Below are positions 18,935 to 23,353 of a stretch of 64,000 bases of DNA, piece after piece. Position 1 is the stretch's first letter, and each line of letters starts with the position of its first letter. Both the position numbers and the translations under genes were made by a program. Below the pieces are notes generated by a model, which made no database searches, had not been told where the DNA came from, and worked only from the letters and a program-made list of their open reading frames with translations. The stretch spans positions 6,262,001 through 6,326,000 of the forward strand of contig JAULSN010000003.1 of assembly GCA_033439765.1 (NCBI GenBank), read 5' to 3'. Origin of the DNA: Lasiosphaeria ovina (taxonomy: Eukaryota > Ascomycota > Sordariomycetes > Sordariales > Lasiosphaeriaceae).

Positions 18935-21900
18935 TCAAGCGGGCGGGTGGACGAGGGCGCCCCAGTAGCCGGGGTCGGACTCGGTCGGGGCGCCGGTCAA
19001 GTCGAGCCAGTTCTTGGCGTTTCCGGCGGCGTTGCCCTTGCGCTTGATGCCCTGGGCGTCGCACACGTTGCGGTGGCTGACAGGGATGTAGGGAGCGCGG
19101 GCCTGCAGCACGTCGGGGGCCTCAACGAAGGTCGCCGTCAGCCCGGCCTCAACATGCCACTCGGTGTGGCAGTGGAACAGGTTGATGCCCGGGTTGCTCG
19201 CCACGAACCGCAGCGTTGCCGACGTGCCCGCGTACACGATCACCGTGTCGCGCCGCATCGGGATCGCCGGCTCGCTGTACAGCCCCGGGAAGTTTGTGCC
19301 GCCGTCGGCCCGGCTGACCACCTGGAAGTTGTGCCCGTGCAGGTGGAACGGGTGCGCCCGGTCGTCGTGGTTGTTGATGTTGATCTCGACGACGGCGTTG
19401 AAGGGCAGCACAAACGTGTTGGAGTTTTGGCCGTAGATGGCCGGGTTCTTGACCACGTCGGCCGGTGCCGTCAGCGCCGTGTACAGCGTGGGGATCTGCC
19501 GAGCGAGTTAGATCAGCTGGATCAAAGCAGAGAGTCAGAGCGGCTTACCTTTTGCGCGAGATAGGTGACGCCGTTGAAAAAGGCTCTGGTTGATCCCCAG
19601 CTGTTGGTCCCGAAGCCGGCCGTGAGAAACACGCGAGTGGTTGGGTTCGTCAAAAGGGGCATCACGTCATATGGCACCAGCTGCGTGTCGTCCCACGGCT
19701 TGATTCTGGACGACAGGTCGAAGGGCTGCGGCAGCGGCTTGGCCGGGTCGTAGACGAGCCAGCCGGCAGTCTTGGATCATGGATTAGTTAGCACCCGCCG
19801 TTGCTTAATTATCACAGAACGCCGCCAAGGAGTGAGGGTCGACTAGGTAACTTACTGATGCCTGCTGACCAGGTGGCGTCGCCGAGATGTCAAACATTTG
19901 CGAGTTCATGAAGGCCGCTATCGCAAAGTTCTGGCTCGCAGTCGGCTTGGCCTTGACGAGGACGCTGTAGCGCTGGGCGACGCCCACGAACAGTTGGCTG
20001 ACGGTCAGGGGTTGCGTATAGACACCGTCCACCTACGAAGTTGGAGTTAGCGAAGCAGGAACACGACAATAAGCCCGCAGACACTCACCTCAACAATGGT
20101 CATGTCATGCTGGTCAAACTCCAAGTACTGCGCTGCCACGGCGCCCATGTTGATGATGCGGAACAGGTACGTCTTGCCCGGCACAATGCTGAACTTGACA
20201 TTTTGCGCCTCGTTGATCAGGCCGGAGTTGGGAACTGGCTCTGCGCCGCCGGTGGAGTCCGTGTTGTCCGAAGACAGGTACTGATGTACCAGGAAGGGCG
20301 CCTCGGTGTGGTATAGGTCCGACAGCGTCACGGCGATCTCGGCGTCCGGGATGCCGTACGGCGCTTTGACGTCGTTGACCATGAGCGGGCCGCGGAAGCC
20401 GTCTGTTCAAAGGGAAGTTGTTAGTGACAGAAACTCGACAGGGGTCAGATGAGACTGAAGCGGGAAGCGCCTACCAATGTATTGTCCGCCAATGTGGGCA
20501 TGGTACCTGCGAGAAATGTCCGTAAGCAATGAGGTAATCAGCAGCATCGAGACCGGAAACATACCAATATGTCCCAGGCTGCAAGACCTTGAACTGGTAG
20601 ACGAAGGACGCGCCCGGCTGTATGGGACACTGCGTGACCATGGCTGGCCCGTCGGCATACGTTGTATTTTCCTGGAAAATGCCATGGAAGTGAATGGCGG
20701 TGCTCTCGTTGCCGAGCGAGTTGACGACGTTGATCTTGATCTCGTCGCCGAGGTTGACGAGAAGGGGCGGGCAGGGCCACTGGCCGTTGATGCCGACAAA
20801 AGGGCGCGCAAACCCGTCTGGCGCGGCCCGCACCCACGTGATGTTCCAGTTGAAGGTACGCAGGATGGGTTTGGGTACCTTGACGGTGCCTGTCGCCGAG
20901 GGGAAGAGGGTGGATCTAGTTGGGGTGCTGAGGGTAGAGGTCCTTGAACTGCTGGAAGATGTCGATGATCTCCGAGAAGTTGACGACGATGAGCTCGTCC
21001 GGGACGATGAGGAACTGCTTCTCGTGCTAGAGGTTGAAGACGACCTGCTGCTGCTTGAGGACGACCTGCTGCTGCTTGAGGACGACCTGCTGCTGCTTGA
21101 GGACGACCTGCTGCTGCTTGAAGACGTCCTCGAACTCGAAGACGAGGATGACGACCTAGAGCTGGAAGTGGAGCTGGTTCTACTCGTCGAAGACGATGAC
21201 CTGCTGGACGAAGATGACCTTGAAGTCGATGATGATGACGATCTTAAGCTTGTCGAAGAAGTGGAGCTACTTCTGCTGGACGAAGTGCTAGACGATGACC
21301 GGCTGGTGCTGCTGGTGGAAGAAGTTCTGCTCGACGACGTGGAGCTGGTTGAGATGGGAGGCGGGGGTCCGGGAGGAGCTATGGCAATTATTTTGTTTGA
21401 GCTGGACGTGTAGATCCTAGAATTCCCAAACACGGGCCTCTGGAACTTTTGCAGGCGGCCAGAGGCGACTGCAAGGGCAATTGGCTGTAGGACTCCGCCC
21501 ACAGGCACGGCGTTGTACGCAACAAGCCCCTGGTTGACGTCGGCTAACCAAACCTGCTCTTTGTCAGCGGCGTCTCACGACGGATGACTGGAGAGAAGAC
21601 GTACAATTCCCGTACCAGCCTTCCCGTTGAGAGTCGTCACAGTTGGTATTCCCTGCCCTGCAAATGTCATCGAACTCTGGCCCGCCAAAGTAAAAAGGGG
21701 CTTGCCGCCGCTGATGCTGAATTTGTAGGCATACAAAACGTCATTTGTCGGGGCAAAGCTGGACAGAGTTGGTTAAGATTTCAGAGAAAGGGGAATGTTA
21801 TAGGGTCAAAACTCACTAGATATAACCGCCCTCTCCCGGGTAGCTCCCAATCCCTCCATAGAAGGATGTCCCGACCGTGATTTGCTGAAGCACCTTGTCA

Positions 21901-23353
21901 GTACCTCCTGGCCCATTCGCAAACCCCCCGAGGTCATCAGCATTCAAAATACTCAGCACGCCCCCGGGCCCTTTGCCGCCGACAAGGGCAATCCGCGCGA
22001 CCCCTCCGCCAGAGAACGCGGCTGGGTCTAGTAGCGTGACGCCTGAGCTGCCGAGGTCTTTATCGCCTCCATTCAGATTCTGGTAGTTGTACGCTTCCCA
22101 GTAGTCCTGCATGAAGTGTGTCAGACTTTCACGCAAACAGCACGGTTCAAGGGGTTAGTCGCATGGCCCTCACCTGTTGCGTCAGAGCTCCGCTCGTCAG
22201 GTCGACTCGAAAGTTGCACACGGCGTTGGGCAGCGTGCTGATGGGCACCTTGCCGTTCGCCGGGGTCCCGGCGCCGTTGGCTCCCTGTCCGCGGCCGTTT
22301 CTGTGCGCATTAAGTCAGCTGAATGGGAAGGAGTTCTCTCAAGGAAAAGGGCTGGAGCTACGGACCCAGTCGCAAAGAATATCCTGCTGTTTGGCGCATC
22401 CCAGGAAATGGCCATGCCACTGTGCCAGATCCCGACCTTGCCCCCTGACTGGTCGTTGATGTCCAGGGGCTGCGGCGACGGGGCGCCAGGTGCGGCTGCC
22501 ATGGCAACCATGTTGGCGACGTTGCCAGTGGTTTTGGACACCGTCACAAGCATTCCCGAGTAGTTGAAATTGTCACTGAGAAAATAGTGGTTAGTTAGCG
22601 TGTGACTTCATCCAATAGTTGACAGAAATGCTCACCAGTGGCCTCCGAATCCAGCGACGATGTAGTCGCCTGCCATGGCAAGACTCGGCCGCTGCAGGAC
22701 GGTCCCGCCTACAAAGTAACGAGCTCGGTCGTTGACGGCGTTGTGACCCTCGAGACTGACGGGGAACCCTGCAGCGTTCTGCAATGAGGGAAGCCTCACG
22801 GCGTAGAGCTTGTACTGGCCGTTGATGGCCCCCCCGCCGGCAGCGCCGTTCTTGTAGCCCTTGGAATAGAGATACATGATGTTGGTGCTGGGGTCAATGA
22901 CTGGAGTCGACGTGATGCCGATCATGTTGGGTATATCGCCGCACTGAGCATCGCTGGCGAGGAACGGGGGGTCCAGAGTCCGCTGCTGGACAATGGCGCC
23001 CGTGAGACCGTCTAGCACGCGGATGACGTTTTGGTTCGACACGACAATGACATACTCGTTTGCGCCGCCAGGGGCGGTCCAGACCAAGGGTTTTGCGTGA
23101 AACATCTCATTGGTGTTGAACGTGTCTCTCCACTGCATCACGTAGGAGCCCAAGTTCGCAGGATCGACATTGTGGTTAGGGAGATATCCGGATTGCGGTA
23201 CATCCTGAGAGCGTGGTCAGTCAAACCAGTGAGTCCGGCTTCTGCGACCTCAAGAGAACAACTCACACCATCCTGCAGCTCATCAGTGGGCGAGACCGAA
23301 AGAACAAGTGCCGGTAGAGCCACCAGCACTGCCCACGCAAGAGACGGCCACAT
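18935..23353 (-). CDS. secreted PQQ-type beta-propeller / multicopper oxidase fusion
   Basis: Predicted extracellular bifunctional protein. Twelve exons (from the 5' end: 23353-23267, 23204-22636, 22575-22366, 22300-22174, 22106-21817, 21758-21605, 21553-20565, 20506-20475, 20402-20089, 20032-19856, 19770-19549, 19495-18935) keep one frame to 1243 residues. Residues 1-20 form a signal peptide. Residues about 30-540 form a quinoprotein/polyvinyl-alcohol-dehydrogenase-like propeller without a CxxCH heme site. Residues about 546-700 are a Ser/Thr/Arg linker. From about 705 there is a three-cupredoxin multicopper oxidase with all four copper motifs: HFHG (767), YHAHIGGQY, HPFHLH (1105) and HCHTEWH (1165), with an axial Leu ten residues after the Cys. 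The oxidase part looks ferroxidase/Fet3-like or laccase-like. There is no C-terminal membrane helix. Exon 7 alone spans propeller end, linker and oxidase start. Confidence 0.9.
20920..21360 (-). repeat. low-complexity Ser-rich linker coding repeat
   Basis: Inside exon 7 of the fusion gene. On the + strand four near-perfect 21-bp units (GAGGACGACCTGCTGCTGCTT) run from about 21036 to 21120. They are flanked by degenerate GACGAY/CTGCTG repeats out to about 20920 and 21350. They encode the Ser/Arg/Thr linker. The same stretch leaves the opposite strand open as an acidic Leu/Asp/Glu frame (20694-21413), which is treated as a by-product. Confidence 0.8.

What the first reader, a model, noticed from the sequence alone, without database searches (positions are those of the whole stretch)
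18935..23353. Secreted quinoprotein-type propeller fused to a multicopper oxidase
One gene encodes a signal peptide, a PQQ/PVA-dehydrogenase-like beta-propeller, a linker of about 150 residues and a complete multicopper oxidase with all four copper motifs. The fusion is directly supported: exon 7 (20565-21553) runs without a break from the last propeller blade through the linker into the first cupredoxin domain, and all 12 exons keep one frame. A dehydrogenase-type module and an O2-reducing copper oxidase on one chain suggest intramolecular redox coupling, for example electrons from an alcohol or sugar passed to copper, or paired attack on a polymer or metal. The family-level assignments are established; the coupling is inference. 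I do not know of a described enzyme with this order.
Basis: partly seen in the sequence, partly recalled or inferred. Interest (0 to 1): 0.85.

Follow-up and report, generated by a model that had tools for sequence, protein, structure and literature searches.

The report
Fungal dehydrogenase-like propeller fused to ferroxidase
A fungal gene joins a secreted propeller that resembles bacterial PQQ alcohol dehydrogenases to an oxygen-reducing copper ferroxidase on one protein, a combination kept in two classes of fungi but sometimes cut in two in public gene models.

Summary
On the minus strand, 23353-18935, twelve exons with GT-AG introns (sites picked by eye) give one 1243-residue frame: signal-like N-terminus, propeller, 162-residue Ser/Thr/Arg linker, complete multicopper oxidase. 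It is no local accident: 10 of 120 listed relatives have it, and a second, 1199-residue fusion lies in the same genome. Distances of the two halves agree (Mantel r 0.88). Some public "stand-alone" oxidases begin in the linker without a signal, as expected of split models. The oxidase is Fet3-like without a membrane anchor. The propeller has no Pfam/NCBIfam match, but a homologue has the eight-bladed quinoprotein fold, and Trp, Asn and Lys of a PQQ-dehydrogenase site align in 12 of 12 profile runs, where BamB keeps none in 9. The calcium-ligand Glu did not align; the catalytic Asp did only in part. Electron coupling is unproven: disordered linker and no confident docking in the one full-length model; spacing between halves 89-602 residues.

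The parts
18935..23353 (-). Fusion gene: signal-like N-terminus - PQQ-ADH-like propeller - S/T/R linker - Fet3-like multicopper oxidase; 12 exons, 1243 aa
   Evidence: single frame, 11 GT-AG introns; exons 23353-23267, 23204-22636, 22575-22366, 22300-22174, 22106-21817, 21758-21605, 21553-20565, 20506-20475, 20402-20089, 20032-19856, 19770-19549, 19495-18935
21377..23353 (-). N-terminus and eight-bladed quinoprotein-type propeller, aa 1-538 (introns included)
   Evidence: no Pfam/NCBIfam hit; homologue P0122 modelled at mean pLDDT 83 matches PQQ alcohol dehydrogenases; coordinates
20891..21376 (-). Linker aa 539-700, 104 Ser/24 Thr/19 Arg of 162, inside exon 7
   Evidence: the corresponding stretch 541-622 of P0002 has pLDDT under 50, but that public model's linker itself looks mis-predicted
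18935..20890 (-). Fet3-like soluble multicopper oxidase aa 701-1243 (introns included)
   Evidence: PF07732, PF00394, PF07731; Fet3p 1zpu best match
22425..22427 (-). W269, opposite the PQQ-stacking Trp (MxaF W243; role recalled)
   Evidence: 12 of 12 hhalign runs, 9 of 9; against: in 2 low-probability runs with MxaF alone it falls on a Trp six residues earlier. Kept in 10/10 fusions, 129/134 other fungal, 29/29 putative bacterial
22297..22299 (-). N290 (TGN motif), opposite the calcium-ligand Asn (MxaF N261)
   Evidence: 12 of 12 runs, 9 of 9; 9/10, 130/134, 29/29
22056..22064 (-). D346-x-D348; D348 is the most conserved of 522 columns and the candidate catalytic Asp (MxaF D303)
   Evidence: D346 or D348 on the catalytic Asp in 3 of 12 and 3 of 9 hhalign runs; D348 on D303 in 3 of 3 weak HMMER alignments to MxaF (7-9 bits)
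21972..21974 (-). K376, opposite the active-site Arg/Lys (MxaF R331)
   Evidence: 12 of 12, 9 of 9, 3 of 3 HMMER alignments; 10/10, 128/134, 29/29
22941..22943 (-). C117, kept in 170 of 173 propellers; opposite one Cys of the vicinal pair of PQQ-ADH-type L103
   Evidence: 4 of 4 runs with L103 as master
19331..19354 (-). HPFHLHGH copper motif (aa 1105-1112)
19154..19174 (-). HCHTEWH copper motif with the T1 Cys (aa 1165-1171)

Best explanation
A secreted, soluble two-module oxidoreductase. Shown: one reading frame for a quinoprotein-ADH-fold propeller and a copper-complete Fet3-like oxidase without a membrane anchor, an architecture shared by fungi of two classes. Inferred step 1 (about 0.55): the propeller holds PQQ with a metal and oxidises an extracellular alcohol, aldehyde or sugar. 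Inferred step 2 (about 0.4 overall): the tethered oxidase is the electron sink, taking electrons at its T1 copper and reducing O2 to water, so the pair acts as a PQQ-dependent oxidase. Because the tether is long, apparently disordered and of variable length, transfer is more likely by transient encounter or a local shuttle (Fe3+/Fe2+ or quinone/hydroquinone) than by a fixed docked complex.
For: Architecture. Co-inheritance of both halves: the 12 fused MCOs lie inside one 35-row clade of 63 (SH-aLRT 100), the 12 fused propellers inside one 35-row clade of 89 (SH-aLRT 100); Mantel r 0.877, 0 of 9999 permutations as high, 16 proteins. PQQ-type site: hhalign to PQQ-ADH-type proteins, W/N/K opposite the expected residues in 12 of 12 runs and 9 of 9, while BamB, with a comparable score, keeps none in 9 of 9; D348 on D303 and K376 on R331 of MxaF in 3 of 3 weak HMMER alignments. 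MxaF E177, W243, N261, D303 and R331 were located in 1w6s; E177, N261, D303 and R331 are named as metal-site residues in PMC8028316 (passages). Oxidase: E185 and D409 of Fet3p kept in 16 of 16; their role is stated in PMC11817551 (passages). The genome also has at least five loci matching the AA12 model PF22807 over its cut-off, so use of outside PQQ by this fungus is plausible.
Against: Calcium-ligand Glu not matched (N221 opposite it in 6 of 6 valid runs, D220 beside it); catalytic Asp matched in only 3 of 12 and 3 of 9 profile runs. With MxaF alone W269 missed W243 in the 2 runs that were in register, at probabilities of 6-15%. No curated PQQ model hits the window propeller. No confident placement of the two modules: pTM 0.55 for P0002, the only full-length protein folded. 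Spacing 89-602 residues. Sister propellers such as P0011-P0014 carry no Cu-oxidase domain. D283 of Fet3p kept in only 6 of 16. No PQQ synthesis is reported in eukaryotes (PMC6881789, abstract).
Confidence: 0.4

Rival explanations
1. Co-localisation without electron coupling: the propeller and the oxidase act separately on the same surface or polymer; the tether only keeps them together, as carbohydrate-binding modules keep enzymes on a substrate.
For: Spacing varies 89-602 residues in 12 fusions (113-602 without P0002, whose linker looks mis-predicted); WSC domains lie between the modules in P0006, P0007, P0009 and P0010; linker disordered and no confident docking in P0002; many propellers of the family occur with WSC domains and no MCO.
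Against: Both halves have been inherited together and both look like redox modules, so cooperation is a simple expectation.
Confidence: 0.32
2. The propeller is a binding module or a non-redox enzyme (as BamB or tetrathionate hydrolase in the same fold class); only the oxidase is a redox enzyme, acting as an extracellular Fe(II), Mn(II) or phenol oxidase.
Against: Of 173 propellers W269 is kept in 168, N290 in 168, K376 in 167 and D348 in 173, while BamB has none of the aligned site residues in 9 of 9 runs.
Confidence: 0.22
3. Annotation artefact: two neighbouring genes read as one through a low-complexity stretch.
For: Some public models are split, e.g. P0234 (Lasiosphaeria miniovina, 96% identical) starts in the linker; one reverse-strand frame of the linker is also open; the paralogue L021 has a Met at the end of its linker.
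Against: No Met in the window linker and no hydrophobic signal at the start of the oxidase half; ten joined models from several sources (ncbi, jgi, lgn); same junction in one exon of a paralogue; same-contig-length halves in Acephala, Thozetella, Stipitochalara, Leptodontidium and Podospora appendiculata.
Confidence: 0.03

Closest known systems
Fet3p-type ferroxidase (PDB 1zpu)
   Same: Three cupredoxin domains, copper motifs, E185, D283 and D409 equivalents in the window; best PDB match by sequence (388 bits) and, for homologue P0002, by fold (E 1e-58, TM 0.91 on the target)
   Different: No C-terminal membrane anchor; fused to a propeller; the genome's FTR1 hits lie on C28, about 3.3 kb from another MCO; D283 kept in 6 of 16 relatives
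PQQ alcohol dehydrogenases (MxaF, XoxF, ExaA type; NCBIfam TIGR03075)
   Different: No Pfam/NCBIfam match; Glu not matched, catalytic Asp only in part; one Cys where some have a vicinal pair
Coprinopsis cinerea PQQ pyranose dehydrogenase and TrAA12 (CAZy AA12)
   Same: Fungal PQQ propeller enzymes, the former with a cytochrome b domain on the same chain (PMC6881789, abstract and outline)
   Different: AA12 has six blades and resembles soluble glucose dehydrogenase (PMC6881810, passages); PF22807 does not match the window protein; partner is heme b, not an MCO
Trypanosoma cruzi Tc323 PQQ-dependent oxidoreductase
   Same: A eukaryotic protein with PQQ-type propellers reported active with PQQ (PMC13384848, abstract)
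   Different: Six nine-bladed propellers, membrane-associated, no copper oxidase
Fungal propeller proteins with WSC domains
   Same: Same propeller family, 42-61% identical to the window's over the propeller among the MCO-less hits; one lies in this genome (L022)
   Different: Many carry WSC and some Ig-like domains and no MCO; the window protein has neither
Quinohemoprotein alcohol dehydrogenases (1kb0, 1kv9)
   Same: PQQ propeller joined to its electron acceptor on one chain (recalled); among the top fold matches
   Different: Acceptor is a cytochrome c (recalled), not a copper oxidase that reduces O2

Membership tests
PQQ alcohol dehydrogenase (TIGR03075/PF01011 type) | Eight-bladed quinoprotein propeller | tested here: met
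   Fold search of homologue P0122, 61% identical to the window propeller
PQQ alcohol dehydrogenase (TIGR03075/PF01011 type) | Score over the curated family cut-off | tested here: not met
   No Pfam or NCBIfam hit at E up to 1 for the window propeller; of 40 relatives 14 hit PF13360 and 10 PF01011 at E up to 0.01
PQQ alcohol dehydrogenase (TIGR03075/PF01011 type) | PQQ-stacking Trp (MxaF W243) | tested here: met
   W269 in 12/12 and 9/9 hhalign runs; BamB 0/9; missed in 2 low-probability runs against MxaF alone
PQQ alcohol dehydrogenase (TIGR03075/PF01011 type) | Calcium-ligand Asn (N261) | tested here: met
   N290, 12/12 and 9/9; also in the 2 in-register runs
PQQ alcohol dehydrogenase (TIGR03075/PF01011 type) | Calcium-ligand Glu (E177) | tested here: inconclusive
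   N221 opposite in 6/6 valid runs, conserved D220 one residue away
PQQ alcohol dehydrogenase (TIGR03075/PF01011 type) | Catalytic Asp (D303) | tested here: inconclusive
   D346 or D348 in 3/12 and 3/9 runs, otherwise not; D348 on D303 in 3/3 weak HMMER alignments (7-9 bits); D348 is the most conserved column
PQQ alcohol dehydrogenase (TIGR03075/PF01011 type) | PQQ and metal bound; dehydrogenase activity | not testable with these tools
   needs protein
Fet3-type ferroxidase | Three Cu-oxidase domains with all copper ligand motifs | tested here: met
Fet3-type ferroxidase | Fe(II) residues E185, D283, D409 | tested here: met
   E874, D972, D1101 in the window; across 16 relatives E185 16/16, D409 16/16, D283 6/16
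Fet3-type ferroxidase | C-terminal transmembrane anchor | tested here: not met
   best 18-mer of the last 60 residues -0.06; of 21 relatives printed with a tail of 35 or more residues, 20 reach 2.32 or more (P0323: 0.54)
Fet3-type ferroxidase | Partner permease FTR1 alongside | tested here: not met
   FTR1 hits in the genome only at C28:2648798-2649693
AA12 PQQ enzymes | TrAA12 domain PF22807 | tested here: not met
   no match at E up to 1
WSC-domain propeller proteins | WSC domain PF01822 | tested here: not met
   no match; present in fused homologues P0006, P0007, P0009, P0010

The most novel reading that the evidence does not exclude
A eukaryotic eight-bladed PQQ enzyme family, hidden under 'WSC domain' and 'iron transport multicopper oxidase' annotations, one branch of which became a self-contained PQQ-dependent oxidase: substrate oxidised in the propeller, O2 reduced to water by a fused ferroxidase.
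Probability: 0.25. Interest if true: 0.88.

Novelty: new variant of a known kind. Interest (0 to 1): 0.66.

Why it matters
Secreted fungal oxidases that need no separate electron acceptor would matter for lignocellulose, iron and manganese turnover. The fungal PQQ enzymes in the papers looked up here are of the six-bladed AA12 family (PMC6881789, PMC6881810); a conserved eight-bladed type in ascomycetes would be another. The architecture is broken in some public gene models at its serine-rich linker, so it may have been overlooked. It also offers a natural case of a dehydrogenase-type module tethered to an O2-reducing copper enzyme, directly testable by expression.

Tried and rejected
Considered and set aside: laccase identity of the oxidase (Fet3p scores far higher); PVA dehydrogenase (no profile support); AA12 (no match); a local gene cluster (19 neighbouring ORFs scanned by Pfam, give a sugar transporter, methyltransferase, GH76, acetyltransferase, calcium uniporter, phosphatase, zinc-finger and Zn2Cys6 proteins; no pathway seen, but not every gene of the window was modelled). 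Lanthanide dependence: the D346-x-D348 pair recalls XoxF Asp327/Asp329 (PMC8028316), but the better-supported register (D348 on D303) puts G350 at XoxF's second Asp, so I dropped it.

Limits. The structure tool gives no coordinates, so pocket distances could not be measured. P0122, the propeller that was folded, is itself probably half of a split fusion. The PQQ-ADH set was 13 TIGR03075 matches from acidobacterial genomes (10), 5 of them over the curated cut-off, none known to be tested. Profile searches of the PDB with A1 and A2 matched mostly first-blade motifs; A1 also matched MDH 293-342 weakly. The first BamB control used wrong-frame ORFs and was redone with four BamB sequences. In one search the Glu position for master L122 was wrong, so those three runs are left out of the Glu count. 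In one search the global run against MxaF alone was out of register. The line between fungal and bacterial hits was drawn by rank in the hit list with three exceptions, not by taxonomy; 173 of 233 hits, those with a nearly full propeller, were counted. Trees are quick ones with SH-aLRT only, on chosen rows (63 oxidases, 89 propellers). In them the label 'fusion' needs 11 and 8 changes, because split models and MCO-less relatives are interspersed; one origin with losses and splits is my reading, not a test result.

Literature, open-access library only: WSC domain with quinoprotein and with 'iron transport multicopper oxidase' gave 0 papers; the listings show no title or start of abstract that describes this fusion; passages of PMC7902709 do not either.
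Full report
Observation. The gene lies on the minus strand. Pfam finds only the three Cu-oxidase domains, aa 717-1185; the propeller gets no Pfam or NCBIfam match up to E 1. The linker is 162 residues. The window protein has no Met from 458 to 784, so an oxidase mRNA starting in the linker would lack a start codon there, and the linker's 104 serines use all six codons in one frame.

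Other genes. Of 120 proteins listed (273 found) in a whole-length search, ten carry the propeller and all three copper domains (P0001-P0010): Podospora didyma, Pleurostoma, Apodospora (Sordariomycetes), Acephala, Drepanopeziza, Rhynchosporium, Cadophora (Leotiomycetes; classes recalled) and three without a named organism. The same genome has a second fusion on C27, L021: 12 exons, 1199 aa, 60% identical, with propeller end, linker and first cupredoxin in one exon, and a third propeller on C1 followed by four WSC domains and no Cu-oxidase domain on its main frame (L022). The window's species is near Lasiosphaeria miniovina: that species' public oxidase P0234 is 96% identical but begins in the linker.

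Split models. 23 oxidase hits are at least 57% identical to the window's over the domain. Ten start at or inside the domain and say nothing; one (P0250) has a signal-like start; twelve have an N-terminal extension without a hydrophobic signal, eight of these rich in Ser/Thr, and three begin with propeller sequence (P0237, P0239, P0241; P0237 is also among the eight). Five pairs of a propeller hit and an oxidase hit share species and contig length: Acephala P0122/P0242, Thozetella P0136/P0238, Stipitochalara P0126/P0251, Leptodontidium P0022/P0249, Podospora appendiculata P0155/P0241. Contig length is not proof of adjacency. Two further matches in length were dropped (see Tried and rejected).

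History. In a tree of 63 oxidases the 12 fused ones lie with 22 signal-less or partial ones and P0250 in a clade with SH-aLRT 100; next come mostly soluble, signal-bearing stand-alone oxidases, then membrane-anchored Fet3s. In a tree of 89 propellers all 12 fused ones lie in a 35-row clade with SH-aLRT 100, together with relatives that have no fused oxidase. Distances of the two halves agree: Mantel r 0.877, 0 of 9999 permutations as high, 16 proteins including four split pairs. So the union is probably old and mostly inherited, with some losses of the oxidase.

The oxidase. Fet3p is by far the nearest solved structure by sequence and, for homologue P0002, by fold. The Fe(II) residues E185, D283 and D409 (PMC11817551, passages) are all present in the window; across 16 relatives E185 and D409 are invariant and D283 is kept in 6. 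There is no C-terminal anchor, and the genome's FTR1 hits lie on C28, about 3.3 kb from another MCO.

Mechanism. The likeliest reading is a secreted PQQ-type dehydrogenase module tethered to an O2-reducing Fet3-like oxidase that drains its electrons. Direct docking is not supported: pTM 0.55 and a disordered linker in P0002, and module spacing from 89 to 602 residues (113-602 without P0002), with WSC domains between the modules in P0006, P0007, P0009 and P0010. A shuttle (iron or quinones) or transient encounters fit better. Coupling itself has no direct evidence. That fungi can use PQQ is known from AA12 enzymes (PMC6881789, abstract; PMC6881810, passages), and this genome has at least five AA12-type loci.

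Novelty. Each half belongs to a known superfamily; I found no description of their union in the searches named in Tried and rejected. I rate it a new variant of a known kind, with a wider point: a large fungal propeller family that keeps much of a PQQ-ADH site and is often annotated by its WSC domains.

Noticed in passing
L022 (G000:C1:5549000-5558500): Third gene of the propeller family in this genome: end of the propeller, an Ig-like stretch (Pfam match below cut-off) and four WSC domains on one 1082-residue frame, no oxidase domain.
   Followed up: partly
G000:C28:2644994-2649693: FTR1 permease matches about 3.3 kb from a multicopper oxidase match, probably the usual Fet3-Ftr1 iron-uptake pair.
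   Followed up: no
G000 (C27, C3, C1, C23 loci): At least five loci match the AA12 PQQ-enzyme model PF22807 above its cut-off, so this fungus may have other PQQ enzymes.
   Followed up: no
window 37147-38817 (-): Acetyltransferase of the PF13523 type, often seen in siderophore synthesis (recalled), about 14 kb from the ferroxidase fusion.
   Followed up: no
window 34998-36434 (+): GH76 glycoside hydrolase (467 bits), a cell-wall type enzyme.
   Followed up: no
P0002, P0122 (public models): The linker of Pleurostoma P0002 and the C-terminus of Acephala P0122 look by eye like linker DNA read in a wrong frame, i.e. gene-model errors at the serine-rich stretch.
   Followed up: partly
window aa 117 and 219: Two Cys each kept in 170 of 173 propellers; a disulfide near the pocket is possible but was not tested.
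   Followed up: no
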